This document shows, one piece after another, positions 50,911 through 64,000 of a stretch of 64,000 nt of DNA. The first letter of the stretch is position 1. Each line of letters starts with the position of its first letter. The translations under genes were made by a program, and so were the position numbers. The notes under the pieces were generated by a model. The model saw nothing but the letters and a program-made list of their open reading frames with translations, did not search any database and was not told where the DNA came from. Origin of the DNA: Streptomyces sp. YIM 121038 (GTDB taxonomy: Bacteria > Actinomycetota > Actinomycetes > Streptomycetales > Streptomycetaceae); assembly GCF_006088715.1 (NCBI RefSeq), contig NZ_CP030771.1, positions 1,426,001-1,490,000 on the forward strand, in the 5' to 3' direction.

Positions 50911-51795
50911 CTAAGGCACCGCCCGCTCGTCCCCCAGCTCCCCCACCCCGGCGATGCCCCGCTCCAGGAGGTCCACCAGGGTGTGTCTGCTCTTGCCGCG
51001 CGCCTCCGGTGCCAGGCCGCCGTTCGGCTCGGCGAGGTCGGACAGGGCGGCGAGCACGGCGGCCAGCTCCTCCTGGAGCCGGGTGAGGACACCGGCGACC
51101 GCCGCCGCGTTGGACTCCACGATGTCGCCCCACAGCCGGGAGTCGCCGCGCGCGATGCGGGTGACGTCGCGCAGGCCCTGGCCCGCGAGCCGGGCCGCCG
51201 CCACCGGGCCCTCGCTCAGCCGTGCCGCCATCAGGCTGGCGAGGAGGTGCGGCGCGTGCGAGGTGAGGGCGACCGCGTCGTCGTGCGCGCGGGCCCGCAT
51301 CACGCGCGGCACCGCCCCGCACAGCGCGACCAGGCCGAGCGCGCGGTCGAAGGCGGGCTTGGTGGTGAGCCGGGTCGGGGTGAGCACCCAGGGGCGGCCC
51401 TGGAAGAGCTCCGCCCGGGCGGCGAGCGGGCCCGAGCGCTCCCGGCCCGCCATGGGGTGCCCGCCGACGTACGCGGCGGGGTCGGGGGCCCCGGCCAGGA
51501 TCTCGCGCTGCGGGCGGACCTTGACACTCGCCACGTCCGTGTAGCTGAGAGCGAGGCCGCGCGCCTGCTCGCGGGCCAGGACCGGGGCGATCTGGCTGGG
51601 CGGCACGGCGAGGACCGCCAGGTCCACGGGGTGCGGCGGCGGTCCGGGGCGGCCCGCGCCGAGGACGGCGGCGGTGCGGACGGCGGACTCGTCGCGGTCC
51701 GCGAGGTAGACGCACACGCCACGGCCGCTGGCGGCCAGCGCCACGGACGTGCCGATGAGGCCGGTGCCGACGACGGCGAGCGTACGGATCCTCAC
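50911..51795 (-). CDS. pdh: Prephenate dehydrogenase of the 4-hydroxyphenylglycine pathway
   Basis: A 294-residue NAD(P)-dependent enzyme. The Rossmann motif VVGTGLIGTSVALAA is at residues 8-22. YTDVASVKVRPQREI, GGHPMAGRERSGPLAAR and TPTRLTTKPAFDRA are the prephenate dehydrogenase signature, and SHAPHLLASLMAARL is in the helical C-terminal domain. It turns prephenate into 4-hydroxyphenylpyruvate, the precursor for HmaS. There is no ACT domain, as in pathway-dedicated copies that escape tyrosine feedback. GTG at 51795 overlaps the aminotransferase stop (GTGA). Confidence 0.93.
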   Translation of the reverse strand: MRIRTLAVVGTGLIGTSVALAASGRGVCVYLADRDESAVRTAAVLGAGRPGPPPHPVDLAVLAVPPSQIAPVLAREQARGLALSYTDVASVKVRPQREILAGAPDPAAYVGGHPMAGRERSGPLAARAELFQGRPWVLTPTRLTTKPAFDRALGLVALCGAVPRVMRARAHDDAVALTSHAPHLLASLMAARLSEGPVAAARLAGQGLRDVTRIARGDSRLWGDIVESNAAAVAGVLTRLQEELAAVLAALSDLAEPNGGLAPEARGKSRHTLVDLLERGIAGVGELGDERAVP

Positions 51796-53138
51796 GGGGT
51801 GCCTCCCGCGTCCGCGGGGTCCGCCCCGGCGAGCCGTTCGTCGACGAGCGCGGCGATCCGGTCCAGGCCCTGCTCGATCCGCTCGGGCGTCAGCGTGCTG
51901 ATGGAGAGCCGCAGTTGGCGGTGGCCCGCGGTGGAGCCGTAGAAGTGGTGCATGGGGGTGAAGAGCACCCCGTGGCGGCGGGCCGCGTGGGCGAGCAGGG
52001 CGTCGTCGACGGTGAAGGGCACGGTGACGACGATGAAGAAGCCGCCCGTGGGCGCGTTCCAGCTGACGCCCGCGCGGTCCCCCAGACGCCGGTCGAGGCC
52101 GTCGAGCACCTGTTGGAGGTTCTGCCGGTAGACCTCCGTCTCGCGGCGGTTGGCGGCGGCCATGCTGCAGCCGTGGGTGAGCAGCTTGCCGCCGATGACC
52201 GCCTGGACGATCGGCGGGGTGTTGACGGTCAGCATGCTCTTGATCTTCGAGAGTTCGTCGGCGAGCAGGGTGACGGCGCCGCCCGCCCCGGTCACCCGCT
52301 GGCCCGCGACCGCGTAGCCCACGCGGGCGCCGGGCATCCCGGTCTTGGCGAACGAGCCCAGGTAGACGACGTGTTGCCGCGTGTCGAGGGCCTTCAGGGT
52401 GGGCGGCCGCTCGGCGGCGCTGTTCAGGAGCCCGTACGCGTTGTCCTCCAGGAGCAGCAGGTCCTCGGCCGCGGCGAGGTCGAGGAGCCGCCGCCGCTCG
52501 GCGACCGGCATGCTGACACCTACGGGGTTGGCGAAGTCGGGCGTGACGTAGCAGGCGCGCACGCGTCGGCCCGCGGCGCGCGCCCGGTGCAGCTGGTCCG
52601 CCAGGTCGTCGAGGTCGATGCCCCGCTCCCCCGTGCGCACGGGGAGCACCGGCAGGTCGGCGAGGAGCGCGGCGCCGGTCAGGCCGACGTAGGTGGGGCT
52701 CGGTGCGAGGAGCGCGTCCCGGTCACCGGCGCGCAGGGCGCGCAGGACCAGGAACATCGCCTCCTGGCAGCCGACGGTGACGACGACCGACTCCGGGTCG
52801 GCGTCGATGCCCTCGTCCACGGCGAGGCTGCGCGCGACCAGGCCGGCGATGATGCCCTTGGTGTCGCCGTACTGGAAGAGGGCGCGGGCCACGGCGGCCT
52901 CGCTCATGCCGAGGTCGCCGCGCAGATGGGCGCAGAACGTCCGCAGGTACTCGTGGATCAGCGCCACGTCGTAGAAGCCCTCGTAGGGGCGGCCCGCCGC
53001 GAAGGAGATCGCGTCCGGGTACGTGCCCGCGACCTCGTTGAGCAGGTTCATGGATTCCATCGACGTATCGCCGAGCGAGGCGTGCAGGGTGGCCGCGTCC
53101 AACTCGGCGCGGACGATTTCCGATTCCAGGATTTCCAT
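51792..53138 (-). CDS. hpgT: 4-Hydroxyphenylglycine aminotransferase (HpgT/PglE-like)
   Basis: A 448-residue fold-type I PLP enzyme. The N-terminus MEILESEIVRAELDAATLHASLGDTSMESMNLLNEV and ISFAAGRPYEGFYD are characteristic of HpgT. The PLP region includes VTVGCQEAMFLVLRALRAG, TPDFANPVGVSMP, LEDNAYGLLNS and the Lys in LGSFAKTGMPGARVGYAV. The enzyme transfers an amino group, by family knowledge from tyrosine, to 4-hydroxyphenylglyoxylate, giving L-4-hydroxyphenylglycine and regenerating 4-hydroxyphenylpyruvate. ATG at 53138 has only a weak AGG site. It is divergent from hmaS. Confidence 0.92.
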   Translation of the reverse strand: MEILESEIVRAELDAATLHASLGDTSMESMNLLNEVAGTYPDAISFAAGRPYEGFYDVALIHEYLRTFCAHLRGDLGMSEAAVARALFQYGDTKGIIAGLVARSLAVDEGIDADPESVVVTVGCQEAMFLVLRALRAGDRDALLAPSPTYVGLTGAALLADLPVLPVRTGERGIDLDDLADQLHRARAAGRRVRACYVTPDFANPVGVSMPVAERRRLLDLAAAEDLLLLEDNAYGLLNSAAERPPTLKALDTRQHVVYLGSFAKTGMPGARVGYAVAGQRVTGAGGAVTLLADELSKIKSMLTVNTPPIVQAVIGGKLLTHGCSMAAANRRETEVYRQNLQQVLDGLDRRLGDRAGVSWNAPTGGFFIVVTVPFTVDDALLAHAARRHGVLFTPMHHFYGSTAGHRQLRLSISTLTPERIEQGLDRIAALVDERLAGADPADAGGTP

Positions 53139-55584
<2,446 letters not shown>

Positions 55585-55599: not shown

Positions 55600-56004
55600 T
55601 CAGTACATCATGCGTGGATCAACGTAATGCTTGAATTCAAGGAGATTTCCGGTCGGGTCGACGAGCACGAAGGTGCGGTGTTCCTCGACCGTTCCGTCGA
55701 ATCGCGACCGCGGCTCCTGGAATACCGGCACCTTGCGCAGATCGACGAGTCTGAGCAGCGCGTCGAAATCCGTACGGGAGCGGAACGTCACGCCGAAGTG
55801 CCGGGGATAGAGGGAGAGCCGGGGCCGCTCCGGCTCTTCCGGCGCGTAATGGCAGACGAGTTGGTCGCCGAAGAAGTCGAACGTGACGCGGTCCGGATAG
55901 CGGCGGGCCAGCGGGCAGCCCAGGAGCTTGTTGTAGAAGTGCGCGGCGGCGTCCAGGTCGCGGGCCGGGACGGCGATGTGGAAGGCGTCGGCGGAGTTCC
56001 TCAC
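55600..56004 (-). CDS. VOC-family (glyoxalase/bleomycin-resistance-fold) protein
   Basis: A 134-residue single VOC protein: AFHIAVPARDLDAAAHFYNKLLGCPLARR, FDFFGDQLVCHY, HFGVTFRSRTDFDALLRLVDL, FVLVDPTGNLLEFKHYVDP. The metal-ligand positions are His (FHIAV), His (HFGVTF) and Glu (LLEFKHY), as in active glyoxalase-like or dioxygenase-like members. GTG at 56004 overlaps the stop of the ComA-like gene (GTGA); it is the last gene of the halogenase operon. Its reaction is unknown. Roles such as carbon-sulfur or keto-acid chemistry next to ComA, or self-resistance, are inference. Confidence 0.85.
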   Translation of the reverse strand: MRNSADAFHIAVPARDLDAAAHFYNKLLGCPLARRYPDRVTFDFFGDQLVCHYAPEEPERPRLSLYPRHFGVTFRSRTDFDALLRLVDLRKVPVFQEPRSRFDGTVEEHRTFVLVDPTGNLLEFKHYVDPRMMY

Positions 56005-56963
56005 GGGCTCTCCCGGGAGTCGGCGGGGGGCTCGCCGGAGCCGGTGGGGCGCTCGGGCTCCGCCGGGCCCGCGGGGTCGTCGAGGAGCGTGTCGGCGCGC
56101 AGGCCCAGGCGGAGCGTCTCCAGGGCGATGACGTCGTCGAGGGCGACGTTGCCGAGGTTCACCCGGCGGCCGACGCGCTGGATGAAGTACGTCTGGAGCC
56201 CCTTCGTGGGCGCCTCGAAGATCAGCAGGTCCGGGTGGGGACCGGCGTCGAGGATGTCCTCGATGAGGCCGAAGCGCACCTCGCCGTCGGCCCGGCAGAT
56301 GCCGCTGGTGCCGCTCTCGCGCGCCTCCAGGATCACCGCGCGCGCCCCGGCGTCCAGATCGCGCCGGATGTCGGCGATCCACTGGCTCGGCGGATACGTC
56401 TCCGAGCGGCGCGGGTCCTTGAAGCCGACCTCGGAGACGACCTCGAAGTCCGCGGCGAGCCGGGCGATGTAGCGCGCCTTGTGCCGCGGGGCCAGGTCGA
56501 TGGTGCCGTTGGACACCTCCACGCGCCCGCAGCCGTGCTCGCGGCACAGCGCCCGGTAGTCGTCGAAGCGGCCCTTGCGCACGTACGCCTCGAAGAGCGT
56601 CCCGCCGAACATGTACGGGATGCGGTGCTGGCGCAGCACCTCCGTCTTGGCCTTGATGCCGGAGGTGACGAGCGCGGTGCCCCAGCCGAACTTGACCAGG
56701 TCGATGAACTCCCCCGAGCTCTCCACGACGTCCTCGAACCAGCGGACGGGCGCGCCGCCGTCGATGACCATCGTCTGGCCCCGGGTGCGCGGCTTGGGTT
56801 CGCGCAGGGGCAGGTCCAGGGGTCGGGGCGCGCCGGGCGGGGCGGGATCCTGTGGCGCGCGGGCCTGCGGCAAGGCGGTCCGGGGCACGGAGGTCTGCGG
56901 CGTGGAGGTCTGGGGCGTGGAGGTCTGGGGCGTGGAGTTCTGCGGCGTGGAGGTCTGGGGCAC
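56001..56963 (-). CDS. Phosphosulfolactate synthase (ComA) family protein with repeat-encoded N-terminus
   Basis: From GTG at 56963, 320 residues. The last 255 are a ComA-type TIM barrel: SSGEFIDLVKFGWGTALVTS, YMFGGTLFEAYVRKG, GRVEVSNGTIDLAP, VVSEVGFKDP, GARAVILEARESGTSGI and LLIFEAPTKGLQTYFIQRVG. True ComA adds sulfite to phosphoenolpyruvate to give (R)-2-phospho-3-sulfolactate. The first 30 residues are a TP(Q)-rich tract encoded by five 15-bp DNA repeats. An alternative ATG at 56771 would give a standard 256-residue ComA, but it lacks a Shine-Dalgarno. The GTG start lies seven bases after the ligase stop. Whether it makes a sulfonate or was repurposed is unknown. Confidence 0.85.
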   Translation of the reverse strand: MPQTSTPQNSTPQTSTPQTSTPQTSVPRTALPQARAPQDPAPPGAPRPLDLPLREPKPRTRGQTMVIDGGAPVRWFEDVVESSGEFIDLVKFGWGTALVTSGIKAKTEVLRQHRIPYMFGGTLFEAYVRKGRFDDYRALCREHGCGRVEVSNGTIDLAPRHKARYIARLAADFEVVSEVGFKDPRRSETYPPSQWIADIRRDLDAGARAVILEARESGTSGICRADGEVRFGLIEDILDAGPHPDLLIFEAPTKGLQTYFIQRVGRRVNLGNVALDDVIALETLRLGLRADTLLDDPAGPAEPERPTGSGEPPADSRESP

Positions 56964-56964
56964 G
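56890..56964. repeat. Five in-frame 15-bp tandem repeats at the start of the ComA-like gene
   Basis: Units at 56890, 56905, 56920, 56935 and 56950, each close to GAGGTCTGGGGCGTG on the plus strand, encode T-P-Q-(T/N)-S tandems on the minus strand. The start codon GTG (56963-56961) lies inside the last unit, where CAC replaces the GTG found in the others. Copy number changes would alter N-terminal length without frameshift. Confidence 0.85.
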
Positions 56965-56970
56965 GGTCTC

Positions 56971-58335
56971 TCAACTCCCTTGTCCTTGAGGGCTTCTGGC
57001 GCGGTCGGCCACGAGTGCGCGCTTGTGCACCTTGCCGAGGTCGGTGCGCGGCAGGGCGTCCACGACGTGGATCTCCTGCGGCAGCTTGTACGGGGCGAGG
57101 CGGGCGGCGAGGAAGGACGCGAGGGCCGCGCGGTCCGGCGACCCGGCGACGATCCAGGCCGCGACGCGCTGCCCGAGCCGGTCGTCGGGCAGGCCCACGA
57201 CGGCCGCCTCGGTGACGTCCGGGTGGGCCAGGAGCGCGTCCTCGACCTCGCCCGCGCCGACGCGGTAGCCACCGCTCTTGATCAGGTCGGTGTCCTTGCG
57301 GCCGAGCAGCCCGAGGGACCCGTCCGGCAGCCACGCGCCGAGGTCGCCGGTGCGGAACCAGCCGTCGCCGTCCACGGCGGGGCCGCGCCCCACGTAGCCG
57401 GAGAACAGGCCGGTGCCGCGCACCATGACCTCTCCGTCGACGGGGTCGAGCCGCACCCGTGCGCCGGGCACCGGGCGCCCCACCGAGCCCGCCGCCGCGT
57501 CCGCGCCGAGGTCCGCCGGGCGGGGCGAGGCGACGACGAGGGTCTCCGTCATCGCGTACCGGTTGAGGAGGCGGTGCCCGGAGAGGCGCCGGACGCGCTC
57601 GGCGACCGCGCCGGTCAGCCGGTCCGCGCCGGACACCAGGAGCCGGGCGCCGCCGAGGGCCCGCAGGTCGGCCGCGCCCAGGGAGCCCCACAGGGCGGGG
57701 ACGCCGAAGTAGAGGGAGGCGCCCTCCACGGGCGTGAGGTAGCGGCCGGTGTGCACGAGCGGCGAGCCGATCCGCAGCGGTCCGAGCCCCCCGAAGACGA
57801 GGCCGTGGACGTGGGACAGCGGCAGGGCGTGCGCCAGGACGTCGTCCGGGGTCCACCGCCACAGCGCGGCGAGCGCGTCCAGGCCCGCGGCGAGGGCGCG
57901 GCGCGGGAGCACGGCGCCCTTGGGCTGCCCGGTGGAGCCGGACGTGTACAGGATCAGCGCGGGCGTCTCGTCCGGGGGCGGCCCGGGCGGCGGCGCGGTG
58001 TGCGCGGCGCGCGGGGTGAGTGCGGCGAGCCGGTCGTCGTCGAGGACGAGGTCGACGTCGGCGTCGCGCAGCACGTGCGCGCGCTCGCGCGGGGCGGCCG
58101 CCGGGTGCAGCGGGACCGCCGTGCCCCCGGCGGCGAGGACCCCGGCGACGCCCACGAGGGTGTCCACGCTCGGGTGGGCGACGACGGCGACGCGGCGGGC
58201 CCCGGCCAGCGACCGGGCGACCGCGCCGACGGCCCCGGCGAGTTCGTCGCCCGCCAGACTCCGCCCGGCCACGTCGAGGCGGGCCCGGCCCTCCTGGAGG
58301 GCGGGCAGCAGGACCGGAGCGGACTCCACGGCCAC
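56971..58335 (-). CDS. MatB-like acyl-CoA/acyl-carrier ligase
   Basis: A 454-residue ANL ligase. Motifs: LILYTSGSTGQPKGAVLP (A3), NRYAMTETL (A5), GWFRTGDLGAW (A7), GRKDTDLIKSGGYRVGAGEVEDALL (A8) and LPRTDLGKVHKRAL with the catalytic Lys (A10). HALPLSHVHGLVFGGLGPLRIGS and TDLIKSGGYRVGAGE closely resemble malonyl/methylmalonyl-CoA synthetase MatB. MatB-like enzymes accept short dicarboxylates. The next upstream gene is a lone carrier protein, three bases away, so the product could be loaded on it or on CoA. With ComA alongside, a sulfonated C2-C3 acid (an isostere of malonate) is a reasonable but untested substrate. Confidence 0.88.
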   Translation of the reverse strand: MAVESAPVLLPALQEGRARLDVAGRSLAGDELAGAVGAVARSLAGARRVAVVAHPSVDTLVGVAGVLAAGGTAVPLHPAAAPRERAHVLRDADVDLVLDDDRLAALTPRAAHTAPPPGPPPDETPALILYTSGSTGQPKGAVLPRRALAAGLDALAALWRWTPDDVLAHALPLSHVHGLVFGGLGPLRIGSPLVHTGRYLTPVEGASLYFGVPALWGSLGAADLRALGGARLLVSGADRLTGAVAERVRRLSGHRLLNRYAMTETLVVASPRPADLGADAAAGSVGRPVPGARVRLDPVDGEVMVRGTGLFSGYVGRGPAVDGDGWFRTGDLGAWLPDGSLGLLGRKDTDLIKSGGYRVGAGEVEDALLAHPDVTEAAVVGLPDDRLGQRVAAWIVAGSPDRAALASFLAARLAPYKLPQEIHVVDALPRTDLGKVHKRALVADRARSPQGQGS

Positions 58336-58338
58336 GGC

Positions 58339-58596
58339 CTAGGCGGCGACGAGCGCGGCGACCACCGCGACGAACGCGCCGAGCGTCGGGTTCTCCCAGA
58401 TGTCGCGCATCCCGCCCAGCTCCACCTGGTAGGTCTGCTCGACGGCGGCCATCACGTGCAGGGCGGCGAGCGAGTGGCCGCCGAGCGCGAAGAAGTCGTC
58501 GCCGTCCGCGACTTCGGGCACGTTCAGGGCCTCGCACCACAGCGGGGCGATGACGTCCCGGACTGCCGTCGCGGTCGTCGTACGGGTCGCTTCCAT
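58339..58596 (-). CDS. Stand-alone peptidyl/acyl carrier protein
   Basis: An 85-residue carrier domain with the phosphopantetheine site in DDFFALGGHSLAALHVM (Ser of GGHSL near residue 42). EALNVPEVADGDDFF before it and IWENPTLGAFVAVVAAL after it match NRPS-type PCPs. GGAGGAG lies six bases upstream, inside the ferredoxin gene; the ATG overlaps the ferredoxin stop (TGATG). It is followed three bases later by the MatB-like ligase. It would hold the activated acid as a thioester for one of the oxygenases or for an NRPS. Confidence 0.9.
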   Translation of the reverse strand: MEATRTTTATAVRDVIAPLWCEALNVPEVADGDDFFALGGHSLAALHVMAAVEQTYQVELGGMRDIWENPTLGAFVAVVAALVAA

Positions 58597-58844
58597 CAGG
58601 TCTCCTCCAGGTCGTGGCCCGGCCCTCCGGGGCCGCGCAGGGTGATCGCGCCGGACGGGCAGCGGGCGAGCGCGGCTCGCACCCGGTCGGCGAGGCCGGG
58701 GCCGGGGTCCGGGTCGAGCAGCAGGACCCGGCCGTCGGTGTCCGACTGGTCGAAGACCTCGGGCACCTGGGCCAGACAGAGGCCGGACGACGCGCACCGG
58801 GCGCGGTCGACGTGGACGCGCAGCCCGCCGTCCTCCCCGGTCAC
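58596..58844 (-). CDS. 3Fe-4S/4Fe-4S-type ferredoxin for the P450s
   Basis: An 82-residue ferredoxin of the SoyB/FdxA-like P450-partner type: VHVDRARCASSGLCLAQVPEVFDQSDTDGRVLLLD...VRAALARCPSGAITL. Cys ligands are in C-x5-C and the late C-P, a pattern for a [3Fe-4S] cluster (the second canonical Cys of a 4Fe type is Ser here). It passes electrons from a reductase to cytochrome P450. GTG at 58844 overlaps the stop of the preceding P450 (GTGA), so it is made together with the two P450s. Confidence 0.92.
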   Translation of the reverse strand: MTGEDGGLRVHVDRARCASSGLCLAQVPEVFDQSDTDGRVLLLDPDPGPGLADRVRAALARCPSGAITLRGPGGPGHDLEET

Positions 58845-60085
58845 CGGGTGGGCTCCTGCCAGGTCACCGGCAGGTGGTCGAGGCCGTGGGCCAGCGCGTG
58901 GACGCGGAACCGGACGGCGTCCCCGGAGCCTTCGAGCCGCAGCCCGGGCAGGCCGCGCGGCAGCGCAGGATAGGCGGCGCCGAGCAGCATCCGGGCGAGG
59001 GCGGCGCCCAGGCAGTGGTGGATGCCGTGCCCGAAGGTGACGTGCGCGGCGGGCTCCCGCGCGATGTCGAAGCGGTCGGGCTCGGCGAGCAGCGCGGGGT
59101 CGCGGTTGGCCAGCGGCAGGGAGCAGATGACGTACTCCCCCGCCCGCACGAGCTGCTCGCCGACGGTGACGTCGGTCAGCGCGACGCGCGGGGTGGGGGC
59201 GTGCGGCACCGCGAGGTAGCGGAGCAGTTCGTCGACGGCGCGGCCGACGGCGTCGCGGTCGTCGTGGGCGGCGGCGAGCCGGGCCAGCTGTCCGGGGTGC
59301 TCCAGGAGCAGCAGGGCGCCGAGGCCCAGCATGCCCGACAGGTTGTCCAGGCTGGCGAGCACGAGGAGGACGCACACGCCCCGCAGTTCCTTGTCGGTGA
59401 CGTCGGCGCCGTGGTCGGTCACCAGCGTGCCGAGGAAGCCGTCGTCGGGGGCGCGGCGCTGCCGGTCCACCATCGCGGCGACGTAGCGGGACAGGAGTTC
59501 GCCCGTCGCGGCCCGTCGCCCGCGGGCCGCGCCACCGGCGAGGAAGCCGTGGCACAGGCGCAGGAACTCGGCGCGGTCGTCGCGCGGTACGCCGATCAGC
59601 TCGCACAGGACCGCGCCGGGCACCGGCAGGGCGAAGCCGTCGACCAGGTCGGCGGGCGGCCCGGCGCGGCGCAGCGCGGCGAGGCGCTCGTCGATGACGG
59701 CGTCGACGCGGGGCCGGAGCCTGCGGATGCGGCGGAGGGTGAACTCCGGGGTGAGGATCTGCCGCAGGCGGGTGTGCTCGGGCGGGTCGTAGTCCATGAG
59801 CTGGCCGATCATCGCGTCGGGCCGGACGCCGAGTTCACGGCCCGACGCGGTCCGGGAGCCGAAGCGGCGGCGGGTGGAGAACCGCAGGTGGTCACCGAGG
59901 ACCTGGCGCACCTCGGCGTGTCCTGTGACCAGCCAGACGGGCCGCCCGTCGGTGCCCGGCCCGACGTCGATCCGGCTCACGGGGGCGCGCGCGGCGAGGG
60001 CGCGCAGGTCGCCGGCCGGGTCGAAGCGGTCGCGGCGGGTGTGGACGACCGTGGCGACGCCGCTGGACGTGGCTGCCTCGGACAT
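58841..60085 (-). CDS. Cytochrome P450, glycopeptide Oxy-like (second of pair)
   Basis: A 414-residue bacterial P450. ExxR is DELLRYLAVPHAPTPR. The heme loop FGHGIHHCLGAALAR has the thiolate Cys at residue 358. The N-terminus TRRDRFDPAGDLRALAARAP and DYDPPEHTRLRQILTPEFTLRRIRRLRP are like Oxy enzymes that crosslink aromatic side chains in glycopeptides. The I-helix reads LVLASLDNLSGMLGLGALLLLEHP: the usual acid-alcohol pair with Thr is replaced by D-N, as seen in Oxy P450s. ATG at 60085 is 25 bp after the first P450 stop. A ferredoxin gene is coupled to its 3' end. Confidence 0.92.
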   Translation of the reverse strand: MSEAATSSGVATVVHTRRDRFDPAGDLRALAARAPVSRIDVGPGTDGRPVWLVTGHAEVRQVLGDHLRFSTRRRFGSRTASGRELGVRPDAMIGQLMDYDPPEHTRLRQILTPEFTLRRIRRLRPRVDAVIDERLAALRRAGPPADLVDGFALPVPGAVLCELIGVPRDDRAEFLRLCHGFLAGGAARGRRAATGELLSRYVAAMVDRQRRAPDDGFLGTLVTDHGADVTDKELRGVCVLLVLASLDNLSGMLGLGALLLLEHPGQLARLAAAHDDRDAVGRAVDELLRYLAVPHAPTPRVALTDVTVGEQLVRAGEYVICSLPLANRDPALLAEPDRFDIAREPAAHVTFGHGIHHCLGAALARMLLGAAYPALPRGLPGLRLEGSGDAVRFRVHALAHGLDHLPVTWQEPTR

Positions 60086-60110
60086 GGCTCCCTCCCGGGA
60101 ATTCGGCGGT

Positions 60111-61289
60111 CTACCAGCTGATCGGCAGTGTCTCCACGCCGTACGGGGCCTGCCGCCGGAAGCGGATCCCGGCGGGGTCGACGGCGAGTCGCAGGCCGGG
60201 GAAGCGGCGCAGGACCGCCGGGTAGGCGGCGCGCAGCTCCATGCGGACCAGGGACGCGCCGACGCAGTAGTGGACGCCGTGGCCGAGGGCCACGTGGGGG
60301 CCCGGCTCACGGGTGAGGTCGAGGCGGTCCGGGGTGCCCTCGGGGGTGGCGCGGTTGGCCGCGATCAGCGAACAGGCCACGCGGTCACCGGCCTTGATGA
60401 CCTGGCCGCCCAGGGGCACGTCCTCGCGCGCGGTGCGCGGCGAGGCGGTCGGGATGACCGAGAGGTAGCGGATGAGCTCCTCCACCGCGCGGTCGGTCGA
60501 CTCCGGCCGCCCGCGCAGGAGTTCGAGCTGGTCGGGGTGGTCGAGGAGGGCCAGGAGGCCGAGGCCCAGCATGGCCGCCACGTTCTCCACGCCGGAGCCC
60601 ATGACGAACGCGCTGAGGCCCACCAGCTCCTCGTCGCTGACGTCGTCGCCGTGTGCGCGCACCACCCGGCCGAGCAGGTCGTCGGTGGGCTCGCCGCGCT
60701 TGCGGGCCACGAGCCGCCCCATGTACGCCATGTACGCGCCGCCCGCGGTGACCTGGGCGCCGCGCCCCCGGAACGCGGGGCGGCCGATCTTGAGCAGCCG
60801 CGCGAGTTCGGCCCGGTCGTCGCGCTCCACGCCGAACAGCTCGCACATGACGAGGCCGGGCACGGTCCAGGCGACGTGCCGCATGAAGTCGGCCGGTGAC
60901 CCGGCCTTCTCCAGGGTGTCCAGGCTGTCCGCGACGACGCGTTCGACGGCGGGCTCCAGGCCGCTCATGCGCCGGACGGTGAATTCCGGGGCGAGCAGCC
61001 GGCGCAGCCGGGTGTGGTCCGGCGGGTCGTACTGGACGAGGTTGCCCACCTGGGCGGGGCGTCCCCGCGCTCCGCCCGGGGCGGCGACGCGGGTGCTGAA
61101 CCGGTCGGTGTCGCCGAGGACGGCCCGCACCTCGTCGGGCCCGGTGACCAGCCAGCCGGGGCCCGCCGCCGGGTCGTCGGTGAGGTCGGCGCGGGTCAGC
61201 GGGGCCTCGGCGGCGAGCCGGGTCAGGTCCGGCAGCGGGTCGAGCCGGTCGCGCCGGTTGTGCGGGGAGAGGTCGGTCGGCCGTGCCAT
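60111..61289 (-). CDS. Cytochrome P450, glycopeptide Oxy-like (first of pair)
   Basis: A 392-residue P450. ExxR: EELIRYLSVIPTASPR. The heme loop LGHGVHYCVGASL has Cys at residue 342 (Leu replaces the usual Phe at the start). The N-terminus NRRDRLDPLPDLTRLAAEAP and YDPPDHTRLRRLLAPEFTVRRM match its partner and Oxy enzymes. The I-helix is FVMGSGVENVAAMLGLGLLALLDHP, again lacking the conserved Thr. It starts 12 bp after the halogenase stop. Two such P450s, rather than three or four, fit smaller crosslinked peptides of the complestatin/kistamicin type (inference). Confidence 0.92.
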   Translation of the reverse strand: MARPTDLSPHNRRDRLDPLPDLTRLAAEAPLTRADLTDDPAAGPGWLVTGPDEVRAVLGDTDRFSTRVAAPGGARGRPAQVGNLVQYDPPDHTRLRRLLAPEFTVRRMSGLEPAVERVVADSLDTLEKAGSPADFMRHVAWTVPGLVMCELFGVERDDRAELARLLKIGRPAFRGRGAQVTAGGAYMAYMGRLVARKRGEPTDDLLGRVVRAHGDDVSDEELVGLSAFVMGSGVENVAAMLGLGLLALLDHPDQLELLRGRPESTDRAVEELIRYLSVIPTASPRTAREDVPLGGQVIKAGDRVACSLIAANRATPEGTPDRLDLTREPGPHVALGHGVHYCVGASLVRMELRAAYPAVLRRFPGLRLAVDPAGIRFRRQAPYGVETLPISW

Positions 61290-61301
61290 GGGCGGATCAC
61301 C

Positions 61302-62804
61302 TCACTCGCCCGCGCCGGGCGGCTCGCACCAGAGCATGCCGTCCGCCGAGGGCACCAGGCCGTCGCCGTACAGCGGCGCCTCCGGTTCGGCGTCCTCGCC
61401 GAGCAGGGCGCGCATCTGGACCTGGCCGCCCTCCTGCATCACCTCGCGCACCACGGAGGACTTGAACAGCGGCACCATGCTGCCGTCGGCGCTGCCCGCG
61501 ACCTCGTCCACGGCGTCGGAGAACTCCGCGGACCCGGCCCGGAAGCGCTTGGCGACGACGTCGGCGTCGGTGAGGACCTGCTCGCCGGAGGACACGCCGC
61601 CGATCAGCTCGACGAACGACTGCAGTTCGGGCCGGTCGGCCCGGGTGACCTTCTTGGCCCGCCAGAAGTAGGAGTCCTCGTCGTGGTGCATCTCGTAGAA
61701 GGAGAGCAGGAACTCGTAGAAGACGCCGTACTCGCGGCGGTAGCGGACCTCGAACTCCCTGAGGGCGCGCGGCTCGTCGACGGTCCCGGCGAGCACGCTG
61801 TTGATCGAGCGGGCGGCGAGCAGCGCGCTGTAGGTGGCGAGGTGGACGCCGGAGGAGAACACCGGGTCGACGAAGCAGGCGGCGTCGCCGACGAGGACCA
61901 TGCCGGGCCGCGAGAACGTCGTGTGGTGGTACGAGTAGTCCTTGCGGACGCGCAGTTCGCCGTACGGGCCGCTCGTCACCCGGTGGGCGTCGGCCAGGTA
62001 CTCGCTGATCAGCGGGCACTCGGCGATGAGCGCCTGGAGCGCCTGGTGCCGGTCGCCACGGATCTTGTCGGCGAGCTCGCGGCGGACGACGGCGCCGACG
62101 CTGGTGAGGCTGTCGCTGAGCGGGATGTACCAGAACCAGCCGCTCTCGAAGGCGACGGACAGGATGTTGCCGGAGTTGGGTTCGGGCAGCCGCTTGCCGC
62201 CTTCGAAGTAGCCGTACAGGGCGAGGCTGCGGAAGAACTCCGAGTACGCGCGGGTGCCGCCCACGCGCTGGTGGACGCGGCTGCCGTTGCCGGAGGCGTC
62301 GACGACGAAGGCGGCGAGCGCCCGGCGTTCGTGGCCGTCGGCGTCGGTGTAGCGCACGCCGCGCACCCGCTCGTCGTCGGCGACGACGTCGAGGACGGCG
62401 CAGCCCTCGCGGACGTCGGCGCCCACGCGGCGGGCGTTCTTGAGGAGGATGTCGTCGAACTTGGACCGCTCGACCTGGTACGCGTACGACGTCGGTCCCG
62501 ACATGCGGGGCGAGACCGCGAAGGAGAAGGTCCACGGGTCGGGGTTGGCGCCCCAGCGGAAGGTGCCGCCGCGCTTGCGCGGGAAGCCCGCCCTGGCGAG
62601 TTCGTCGGCGACGCCGGTGAGGCGGCACACGCCGTGCACCGTGGAGGGCAGCAGGGACTCGCCGATCTGGTGGCGGGGGAAGTGCTCCTTCTCCAGGACC
62701 AGGACGCGGTGTCCCCGCATCGCCACCAGCGCGGCCAGGGTCGATCCTGCGGGTCCTCCGCCGACGACCACCACGTCGAATTCCTCGGAATCCGGCAACG
62801 TCAT
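61302..62804 (-). CDS. Flavin-dependent halogenase, glycopeptide (BhaA/ComH) type
   Basis: A 500-residue FADH2 halogenase. FAD motif VVVGGGPAGSTLAALVA (residues 12-28), halogenase motif W-x-W-x-I-P at 223-228 (WFWYIP), and GDAACFVDPVFSSGVHLATYSALLAARSINS. Much of the sequence (QIGESLLPSTVHGVCRL, GFPRKRGGTFRWGANPDPWTF, YSEFFRSLALYGYFEGGKRLPEP, FVELIGGVSSGE, VQMRALLGEDAEPE) recalls the chlorinases of balhimycin, vancomycin and complestatin clusters, which chlorinate Hpg or beta-hydroxytyrosine on a carrier protein. ATG at 62804 has GGGGAGG five bases upstream; an ATG at 62816 lacks one. It is the first gene of an eight-gene coupled operon. Confidence 0.94.
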   Translation of the reverse strand: MTLPDSEEFDVVVVGGGPAGSTLAALVAMRGHRVLVLEKEHFPRHQIGESLLPSTVHGVCRLTGVADELARAGFPRKRGGTFRWGANPDPWTFSFAVSPRMSGPTSYAYQVERSKFDDILLKNARRVGADVREGCAVLDVVADDERVRGVRYTDADGHERRALAAFVVDASGNGSRVHQRVGGTRAYSEFFRSLALYGYFEGGKRLPEPNSGNILSVAFESGWFWYIPLSDSLTSVGAVVRRELADKIRGDRHQALQALIAECPLISEYLADAHRVTSGPYGELRVRKDYSYHHTTFSRPGMVLVGDAACFVDPVFSSGVHLATYSALLAARSINSVLAGTVDEPRALREFEVRYRREYGVFYEFLLSFYEMHHDEDSYFWRAKKVTRADRPELQSFVELIGGVSSGEQVLTDADVVAKRFRAGSAEFSDAVDEVAGSADGSMVPLFKSSVVREVMQEGGQVQMRALLGEDAEPEAPLYGDGLVPSADGMLWCEPPGAGE

Positions 62805-62912
62805 CTCCCTCCCCATTCGGGCTTTCCGACGTTTCCCCGGTGGCCGGAATTCCTTCCCGGGCCCGGGATTCCTGTGCGCTCGGTCGAGTCTGGTAATGAC
62901 CGCGGGTGCGCG

Positions 62913-64000
62913 TCAAGCGCGTCCAAGGTCGTTCAAGTCGGCACCGTCTGTTTCAACTCGGGAATTCCCCGGCGCCGCGCTCCGGGAAATGTCACCGGTG
63001 GGCGGGTGTGGTGCCCGGGGTGTTTTCCGGAACCGGCGCGCGACGCGTCCCTCCCTTCTGACGAGCGAGATCAGCGGGCCGGTCATGAACGTCGTCACCA
63101 GGGCCATGAGGACGAGGACGGTGAAGAGTTCCTCGCCGATGATCCCGGCGTCGAGGGCGACGTTCAGGACGATCAGCTCGGTCAGGCCCCGGGTGTTCAC
63201 GAGGGCGGCGACGAGCGCCGCGTCGTGCCGGTCGAGGCCCGCGAGGCGGGCCGCTCCGTAGCCGGGCAGGAGCTTGCCGAGGGTGGCGACCGCCAGGACG
63301 AGGAGCAGCAGGACGACGCCGTCCCCGTCGAGGGCGCCGATGTCGAAGGACAGGCCGGTGGTCACGAAGAACAGCGGCAGGAGCAGCCCCGCGCTCTCCT
63401 CCATCGGGCGCAGCACGTCGGCGTCCGGCACCCCGTCCCCGCGGGGCATGGCGATGCCCGCGAGCAGGCCGCCGAACACGGCGTGCAGGCCCAGTTCGGC
63501 GGTCACCCAGGCGCTGCCGAGGGCCAGACCGAGGGCGAGCGTGAGCTGGTGGGCACGGAGCGCCCCGGAGCGTTCGAGCCACCGCGTGAGCAGCGGCCGT
63601 ACGACCAGGAACAGGAACGCGACGAACACCGAGAGCAGCGCGAGCGACAGCTGCCAGGAGCGCGCGGCGGCGTGCCCGGTGCCCGCGAGCGCGGCGGCGA
63701 GCACCAGCCAGGCCACGACGTCCATGAGCCCGGCCGCGGTGGTCGCGACGGTGCCCGGCGCGGTGCCCGCGAGGCCGCGCTCGCGGACGACGGCGGCGAG
63801 CACCGGCAGCGCGGTGACGGACAGCGCGACCGCCATGAACAGCCAGAACGACCGGCCGTCCACGCCGTCGGGGCGGACCGCGTCGAACACGCCGGGGAAC
63901 ATCCCCGCGGTGCCCGCGCCGATGCCCGCGGGCACGAGGAACGCGCACAGGGCCACGGTCGCCGCGGCTCTGCCGCCCTGCCGCAGCTGCCGCGCGTCCA
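62913..64000 (-). CDS. Cation:proton antiporter (CPA2), C-terminal part (cut by window edge)
   Basis: The frame runs off the right edge; at least 362 residues are visible, about ten membrane helices. Motifs: ALSVTALPVLAAVVRERGLAG, GLMDVVAWLVLAAAL with the ion-binding Asp, LPLFFVTTGLSFDIGAL and NTRGLTELIVLNVALDAGIIG. A 45-residue charged tail follows the last helix. CPA2 antiporters of this kind accompany glycopeptide clusters, in complestatin next to the halogenase, and are thought to take part in export or pH balance. It lies 108 bp upstream of the halogenase on the same strand and may be the true first gene of that operon. It is a homologue of the antiporter at 9273. Confidence 0.9.
   Translation of the reverse strand, partial: DARQLRQGGRAAATVALCAFLVPAGIGAGTAGMFPGVFDAVRPDGVDGRSFWLFMAVALSVTALPVLAAVVRERGLAGTAPGTVATTAAGLMDVVAWLVLAAALAGTGHAAARSWQLSLALLSVFVAFLFLVVRPLLTRWLERSGALRAHQLTLALGLALGSAWVTAELGLHAVFGGLLAGIAMPRGDGVPDADVLRPMEESAGLLLPLFFVTTGLSFDIGALDGDGVVLLLLVLAVATLGKLLPGYGAARLAGLDRHDAALVAALVNTRGLTELIVLNVALDAGIIGEELFTVLVLMALVTTFMTGPLISLVRREGRVARRFRKTPRAPHPPTGDISRSAAPGNSRVETDGADLNDLGRA

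What the first reader, a model, noticed from the sequence alone, without database searches (positions are those of the whole stretch)
55600..62804. Glycopeptide-type halogenase/Oxy operon carrying a ComA-MatB-carrier cassette
Eight minus-strand genes are chained by overlaps or gaps of 25 bp or less: BhaA-type halogenase, two Oxy-like P450s, ferredoxin, lone carrier protein, MatB-like ligase, phosphosulfolactate-synthase-like protein, VOC protein. The first three are standard for glycopeptides. To my knowledge the last four are not a usual glycopeptide set. Hypothesis: the ComA-like enzyme makes a short sulfonate from sulfite and PEP, the MatB-like ligase activates it (sulfoacetate or sulfolactate resemble malonate), and it is held on the carrier protein to acylate or be built into a chlorinated, crosslinked peptide.
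Basis: partly seen in the sequence, partly recalled or inferred. Interest (0 to 1): 0.85.

Follow-up and report, generated by a model that had tools for sequence, protein, structure and literature searches.

The report
Sulfo-acyl starter cassette in complestatin-type cluster
A gene cluster for a complestatin-like antibiotic carries four extra genes that probably make a small sulfur-containing acid and attach it to the start of the peptide, using a toolkit that other actinobacteria seem to use to decorate other molecules.

Summary
In detail: eight minus-strand genes (55600-62816) form one operon. Just outside the window lies a seven-module NRPS with X-type and TE domains, read as Hpg-Trp-Hpg-Hpg-Hpg-Tyr-Hpg: a type V (complestatin-type) glycopeptide cluster. 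PCP, MatB-like ligase, ComA and VOC are a discrete four-gene insert. I found it in five distinct clusters and in none of 14 other GPA loci, three of which keep the flanking order with 130-273 bp at that spot. Outside GPAs, 12 of 28 ComA loci have VOC beside ComA; 11 of these 12 also hold an acyl-CoA ligase and 8 an OafA-type acyltransferase; the 16 without VOC hold neither. The NRPS starts with a condensation domain (C0) that keeps its catalytic His and DG in 5 of 5 cassette-positive clusters and has lost Gly, or His and Gly, in 9 of 9 cassette-negative orthologues. Best reading: ComA and VOC make a short sulfonated acid, the ligase loads it on the PCP, and C0 caps Hpg1 with it. The ligase keeps MatB's Arg but has a changed pocket, so plain malonate is less likely. 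The acid and the VOC reaction are unproven.

The parts
61302..62816 (-). GPA-type flavin halogenase (start may be ATG at 62804)
   Evidence: 76% DNA identity to a halogenase gene in the second GPA cluster of this genome; 86-90% protein identity in the other cassette-positive clusters
60111..61289 (-). OxyA-like cytochrome P450
   Evidence: best solved structure 5hh3 OxyA, E 6.8e-103
58841..60085 (-). OxyB-like cytochrome P450
   Evidence: best solved structure 6fsh OxyB, E 7.3e-142
58596..58844 (-). ferredoxin (Fer4); GTG start at 58844 overlaps the P450 stop
   Evidence: scanned from 58841
58339..58596 (-). lone carrier protein (GGHSL Ser); cassette gene 1
   Evidence: found in the other cassette-positive loci, no lone PCP found in 14 cassette-negative GPA loci
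56971..58335 (-). MatB-like AMP-forming ligase; cassette gene 2
56001..56963 (-). ComA/phosphosulfolactate synthase-family protein with a repeat-rich N-terminal stretch; cassette gene 3
55600..56004 (-). VOC (glyoxalase/dioxygenase fold) protein of 134 aa with invariant H9, H69, E123; cassette gene 4
54433..55584 (+). HmO-like FMN-dependent alpha-hydroxyacid oxidase (Hpg supply)
53331..54446 (+). HmaS/HPPD-like dioxygenase (Hpg supply)
51792..53213 (-). HpgT-like aminotransferase
50911..51795 (-). prephenate dehydrogenase
62913..64000 (-). Na+/H+ exchanger-like protein (runs on to window-equivalent 64430); the four NRPS ORFs follow at window-equivalent 64505 to about 97482, outside the window

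Best explanation
The PCP-ligase-ComA-VOC genes are an acyl-starter cassette added to a complestatin-type GPA cluster. ComA joins sulfite to PEP to give 2-phospho-3-sulfolactate. VOC, a probably metal-dependent partner of ComA, turns this (or its dephosphorylated form) into a short carboxylic acid that still carries the sulfonate; sulfoacetate, an isostere of malonate, is my first guess. The MatB-like ligase adenylates that acid and loads it on the lone PCP. The starter condensation domain C0 at the front of NRPS module 1 takes it from the PCP and acylates Hpg1. The heptapeptide is then extended, chlorinated, crosslinked by the two Oxy P450s on the X domain and released. Shown: gene content, synteny, the insert, domain order, motif conservation, and linkage of ComA-VOC to ligases and acyltransferases elsewhere. 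Inferred: every chemical step, above all the acid and the VOC reaction.
For: The cassette is a unit: 14 cassette-negative GPA loci show none of its four genes; three of them (L102, L112, L115) have the same flanking order with 183, 130 and 273 bp between HmO and ferredoxin. C0 keeps (D/N)HLLMDG in 5 of 5 cassette-positive clusters and has lost Gly, or His and Gly, in 9 of 9 cassette-negative orthologues. C0's best solved relatives include CDA synthetase I (4jn3, 5du9), ObiF1, EntF and 1l5a, which I recall as initiation C domains fed by separate carriers. ComA keeps 36 of 36 near-invariant columns. The ligase keeps the MatB Arg in 5 of 5 but differs from MatB at four pocket motifs, and the genome has another MatB-like ligase with the standard motifs. 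Outside GPAs, 12 ComA-VOC loci: ligase in 11, acyltransferase in 8; 16 ComA loci without VOC: neither.
Against: No product is known. The first His of C0's HHxxxDG is Asp or Asn in all five, so C0 activity is not assured. The C0 contrast comes from one positive and two negative lineages, so it is few independent events. The ligases of the non-GPA loci are of another subfamily: the one tested (L028) is closest to oxalate-CoA ligase, and the five aligned lack the MatB Arg, so the acid need not be the same. Three Actinomycetospora loci and L172 show no acyltransferase. ComA scores 224.9 against the 280 cut-off of the archaeal equivalog TIGR03849. Sulfonate chemistry rests on ComA's family only; its substrates could have changed.
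Confidence: 0.55

Rival explanations
1. The acyl starter is malonate or another ordinary diacid: the ligase is a MatB that loads malonyl onto the PCP and C0 transfers it; ComA and VOC do something else.
For: The ligase's best solved match is S. coelicolor MatB 3nyq (E 2e-96), and it keeps the Arg that I recall as the second-carboxylate ligand.
Against: Motifs shared by four MatB-like Streptomyces ligases (L119-L122) and 3nyq (Phe before HVHG, GVPTMY, ERYG, LMNTS) are all changed in the five cassette ligases; a fifth MatB-like ligase, L125, follows the 4fuq-type motifs instead. A separate MatB-like ligase exists in the genome. ComA-VOC pairs have a ligase nearby in 11 of 12 other loci.
Confidence: 0.12
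2. The ComA-family enzyme has a new nucleophile or product, so the cassette makes a non-sulfonated acid that is still activated and loaded as proposed.
For: The GPA ComAs are a clade of their own (support 100) and most VOC-linked ComAs lie apart from the YitD and MjComA rows, in a tree that is poorly resolved there (L072 falls on the YitD side). No biochemistry for them turned up in the papers searched.
Against: 36 of 36 near-invariant columns kept, in an alignment that holds 1u83 and 1qwg.
Confidence: 0.15
3. The activated acid is put elsewhere (a phenol or another side group), not on the N-terminus.
For: Elsewhere ComA-VOC-ligase genes pair with OafA-type acyltransferases, which as I recall usually acylate hydroxyls.
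Against: No such acyltransferase among the neighbour genes scanned, while a starter C domain with His and DG and a lone PCP are there.
Confidence: 0.1
4. The cassette makes a small sulfonate (coenzyme M-like or a protective metabolite) unrelated to the peptide.
For: ComA is the first step of coenzyme M synthesis in bacteria; PMC8727900 (passages seen) describes xcbB1, C1, D1, E1 with the vinyl chloride cluster.
Against: No xcbC1/D1-type lyase among the neighbour genes scanned; order with halogenase and Oxy genes kept in five clusters; a carrier protein has no role in coenzyme M synthesis as I know it.
Confidence: 0.06

Closest known systems
Complestatin / kistamicin (type V GPA) gene clusters
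   Same: Seven-module NRPS, Trp-type code at module 2, X-type domain before TE, OxyA and OxyB homologues, halogenase, HmaS-HmO-HpgT (PMC6565677, passages seen, on Trp2 and the X domain).
   Different: An extra PCP-ligase-ComA-VOC cassette and a starter C domain that keeps His and DG. From memory complestatin starts with an alpha-keto acyl unit and has no such cassette; I did not have its cluster sequence. PMC6565677 lists OxyA and OxyC, not OxyB, for kistamicin.
Phosphosulfolactate synthase (ComA of methanogens, YitD of Bacillus, XcbB1)
   Same: Family PF02679 with all near-invariant residues.
   Different: Sits with VOC, ligase and PCP instead of the later coenzyme M or sulfolactate genes.
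MatB malonyl-CoA ligase
   Same: Best solved relative 3nyq; Arg of RY(A/G)MTET kept.
   Different: Four pocket motifs changed in all five cassette ligases; probably loads a PCP (inference).
Starter C domains of CDA synthetase I, EntF, ObiF1, VibH
   Same: Among the closest solved C domains to C0 by sequence (naming 1l5a as VibH is from memory); I recall that these take an acyl unit from a separate carrier.
   Different: First His of HHxxxDG is Asp or Asn; the donor acid would be a short sulfonate.
ComA-VOC-ligase-Acyl_transf_3 loci in Frankia-like and other actinobacteria (no name found)
   Same: ComA and VOC 51-69% identical and adjacent; acyl-CoA ligase nearby.
   Different: Use a PF01757-type acyltransferase and another ligase subfamily instead of PCP, MatB-like ligase and C0.

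Membership tests
Type V (complestatin-type) glycopeptide cluster | Seven-module NRPS | tested here: met
   Seven A domains in four ORFs, 2-1-3-1
Type V (complestatin-type) glycopeptide cluster | X domain before TE in the last module | tested here: met
   Condensation-like domain with HRIAADD before a Thioesterase domain; PMC6565677 (passage) gives HRxxxDE for the kistamicin and teicoplanin X domains
Type V (complestatin-type) glycopeptide cluster | Trp at position 2 | tested here: inconclusive
   Code DVAAIGSVTK resembles Trp codes as I recall them; no predictor was run
Type V (complestatin-type) glycopeptide cluster | Oxy-type P450s | tested here: met
   OxyA- and OxyB-like
Type V (complestatin-type) glycopeptide cluster | No sugar attachment | not tested
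   Glycosyltransferases were not searched for systematically
Phosphosulfolactate synthase (PF02679) | Family match and conserved residues | tested here: met
   273.8 bits, cut-off 25.2; 36 of 36 near-invariant columns. Against this, TIGR03849 scored 224.9, below its 280 cut-off for the archaeal equivalog
Phosphosulfolactate synthase (PF02679) | Adds sulfite to PEP | not testable with these tools
   needs an assay
MatB malonyl-CoA ligase | Second-carboxylate Arg (RYGMTET) | tested here: met
   NRYAMTET in 5 of 5; the role of this Arg is recalled
MatB malonyl-CoA ligase | Conserved MatB pocket motifs | tested here: not met
   Four motifs differ in 5 of 5; score below the PRK07787 and PRK07514 cut-offs
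Initiation (starter) C domain fed by a separate carrier | N-terminal C domain, closest to starter C domains | tested here: met
   that the matched domains are starter domains is recalled
Initiation (starter) C domain fed by a separate carrier | Intact HHxxxDG | tested here: inconclusive
   (D/N)HLLMDG: second His and DG kept, first His not
Coenzyme M biosynthesis locus | xcbC1/D1-type lyases beside ComA | tested here: not met
   None among the neighbour genes scanned

The most novel reading that the evidence does not exclude
Actinobacteria hold an undescribed sulfo-acylation module: ComA and a dedicated VOC enzyme make a short sulfonated acid (sulfoacetate or a close relative), a ligase activates it, and a transferase places it, often an OafA-type protein acting on some envelope sugar or lipid. 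A complestatin-type cluster captured the front half and replaced the last steps by a MatB-like ligase, a lone PCP and a starter C domain, giving a glycopeptide capped with a C-sulfonate, the first that I know of. The VOC step would be a new enzyme reaction.
Probability: 0.45. Interest if true: 0.85.

Novelty: new variant of a known kind. Interest (0 to 1): 0.72.

Why it matters
If true it predicts a glycopeptide class with a permanently charged N-terminal cap, which could change solubility and target binding in an antibiotic family of current interest. It would give a natural way to prime an NRPS with a sulfonated acid, and it points to an uncharacterised sulfonate pathway in actinobacteria whose product and receptor are unknown. 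Each step is testable with purified proteins and in an ordinary Streptomyces strain such as S. bicolor.

Tried and rejected
Coenzyme M synthesis was considered because ComA is its first enzyme; no later coenzyme M gene was among the neighbours scanned. Plain malonyl priming was considered and kept as a rival. A tie between ComA and all GPAs was rejected: 16 of 19 Streptomyces genomes with an OxyB-like P450 have no ComA. Literature: none of the search listings showed a paper linking phosphosulfolactate synthase with a glycopeptide or another antibiotic cluster; the library holds open-licence PMC papers only, so subscription papers on type V GPAs were not seen. Passages were seen in PMC8727900, PMC10562698 (comA in Alicyclobacillus, no such link), PMC6565677 and PMC7567792; no paper was read whole. 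Contig-length matching between the ComA and VOC hit lists was used only as a hint: 15 lengths shared between 120 ComA rows and 119 of the 120 VOC rows, about 1.8 expected. Structure prediction of VOC was not available, so its reaction type could not be narrowed; by sequence its nearest solved protein is 3rri, whose function I do not know. Of 37 other genomes of the phylum draw with ComA, flanks were fetched for 18; in G574, G482 and G408, which have two ComA places each, only one was. Two of the fetched loci (L069, L075) gave no tblastn match to our ComA, being divergent, and still count among the 16 loci without VOC; several of those 16 stretches are short or cut (L065 and L075 have ComA about 0.3 and 1 kb from a contig start, L079 is 10 kb).
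Full report
The window is bases 1426001-1490000 of the larger contig of an 11.1 Mb genome.

Surroundings. Left of the operon lie HmO, HmaS, an HpgT-like aminotransferase, prephenate dehydrogenase and export-type genes. Right of it, beyond the window, lie a Na+/H+ exchanger-like gene and four NRPS ORFs. Their seven A domains give codes DAYLLGMLCK, DVAAIGSVTK, DVYALGLLCK, DVYHLGMLCK, DVYHLGMLCK, DASTVAAVCK and DAFLLGMLCK, which I read from memory of known codes as Hpg, Trp, Hpg, Hpg, Hpg, Tyr, Hpg. The ORFs hold 2, 1, 3 and 1 modules; the last ends in a condensation-like domain with HRIAADD and a thioesterase. PMC6565677 (passages seen) reports Trp at position 2 for type V GPAs and an X domain made inactive by mutation of crucial His and Gly residues of HHxxxDG. 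I take this as a complestatin-type cluster.

The cassette. PF02679 was found in 3 of 392 genomes of the genus, the window's own included. An OxyB-like P450 at E <= 1e-110 was found in 19 of 392 in a draw with the same handles; the three with ComA are among them. I fetched the OxyB neighbourhood of 14 of the 16 ComA-less genomes (G036 and G048 were not fetched; L109 is only 4.6 kb). None shows ComA, VOC, a cassette-type ligase or a lone PCP: the ligase and A_LIG hits there are 29-38% and lie where NRPS adenylation domains are expected, and the PCP hits are weak and look like NRPS carrier domains. L102, L112 and L115 keep the order PDH, HpgT, HmaS, HmO, Fdx, OxyB, OxyA, halogenase, with 183, 130 and 273 bp between HmO and Fdx. 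So PCP-ligase-ComA-VOC behaves as one insert. Five distinct clusters have it: the window, S. bicolor (L024), Streptomyces sp. HD (L025), one MAG (L023 = G001 = L061) and G288 (L060); in L060 no ferredoxin was detected. Protein hits of 77-95% identity from other Streptomyces (P0001, P0002, P0004, P0005) suggest more, but their contexts were not seen.

The starter domain. ORF1 begins with a C domain, C0. Its best solved relatives are 7c1k, CDA synthetase I, ObiF1, EntF and 1l5a. I searched it in all 19 OxyB-positive genomes and in the S. bicolor and HD genomes. All five cassette-positive clusters keep (D/N)HLLMDG. Nine cassette-negative genomes have an orthologue (51-63% identity) and all nine have lost the motif: DHL(L/V)(L/M)D followed by V, S or A in six, HQLLVDH in three. 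Seven (G047, G050, G149, G184, G207, G212, G277) have no match above 40%; G050 is only 82% complete. G207 has a complestatin-like NRPS with no C0 orthologue and no C motif found directly before its first A domain. A tree puts the five positive C0s in one clade (98) and the nine negatives in two, so the correlation rests on few independent events.

The module elsewhere. I looked at 28 non-GPA ComA loci: L026-L028 (found by ComA), L062-L079 (18 loci, found by PF02679) and L166-L172 (7 loci, found by VOC in 7 of 383 other genomes of the class). Twelve have VOC next to ComA; 11 of these have an acyl-CoA ligase, and 8 an acyltransferase like those of L072, L076 and L166, which Pfam names PF01757. 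The four without the transferase are the three Actinomycetospora loci and L172, an 8.3 kb contig. Of the 16 loci without VOC, none shows ligase or transferase at E <= 1e-5; some of those stretches are short. Because L166-L172 were chosen by VOC, the count there is for ComA given VOC (7 of 7). A phosphatase-family gene follows VOC in L028 (dual-specificity type) and L172 (histidine type), as would suit a phosphorylated intermediate. In a quick tree the GPA ComAs form one clade (100) in an open fork with Frankia-like VOC-linked ComAs and a branch of mostly VOC-less ones, so the source of the cassette is not settled. That the f90 genomes are Frankia-like is inferred from a contig length shared with Pseudofrankia inefficax.

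Residues. ComA: 36 of 36 columns near-invariant among 21 other family members are kept. VOC: H9, H69, E123 and several Arg, Lys and His residues are invariant among 27 sequences (the query and 26 picked from the 120 listed); the three-residue pattern resembles metal-binding VOC enzymes as I recall them, and FosB and FosA are among the weak matches. Ligase: all five keep NRYAMTET but differ from four MatB-like Streptomyces ligases and 3nyq at Ser/Phe before HVHG, GVPALW/GVPTMY, NRYA/ERYG and L(V/A)(V/I)AS/LMNTS; a fifth MatB-like ligase (L125) follows the 4fuq-type motifs. PCP keeps GGHSL.

Mechanism. These data fit a starter-acyl cassette: acid made by ComA and VOC, activated by the ligase, held on the PCP, transferred by C0 to residue 1. 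That the acid is a sulfonate follows from ComA's family only. Sulfoacetate is favoured because it mimics malonate and the ligase keeps the Arg of MatB; sulfolactate or sulfoacrylate are open. VOC could act oxidatively or as a lyase; nothing here decides it.

Novelty. The listings showed no paper describing such a cassette in a GPA cluster or the ComA-VOC-ligase-acyltransferase module. Only open-licence papers are held, so this is weak evidence of absence. I rate it a new variant of a known kind, with a possibly new enzyme step inside.

Noticed in passing
G000:C1:8391710-8442771 (L013, L020-L022): A second GPA cluster in the same genome, of classical type: my reading of its codes is x-Tyr-x-Hpg-Hpg-Tyr-Dpg; it has a type III PKS and an enoyl-CoA hydratase-like gene, an A-T protein beside a P450 and a hydrolase, and a FemAB-like gene. 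No C motif before its first A domain, and the genome's only ComA is in the window.
   Followed up: partly
56830-56963, minus: The ComA ORF starts with a run of TPQTS/TPQNS-like repeats before the conserved domain; orthologues match from query residue 5 to 49, so the true start may lie downstream.
   Followed up: no
L067, L071, L069, L075: Very divergent ComA-family proteins (28-29% identity, or no BLAST match) in actinobacteria of about 3 Mb; their contexts were checked only for our cassette genes.
   Followed up: no
L074 (G574:C10): A ComA 53% identical to ours has no VOC or ligase nearby but an adjacent rhodanese/metallo-beta-lactamase-fold protein, which may concern sulfur supply.
   Followed up: no
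G014, G163, G247, G081, G196, G093 (L103, L105, L107, L108, L110, L111): Their starter C domains keep the catalytic His but have V, S or A for the Gly of the motif; five of the six loci (not L105) carry two P450a-like genes plus P450b. They could be relics of lost acyl priming.
   Followed up: partly
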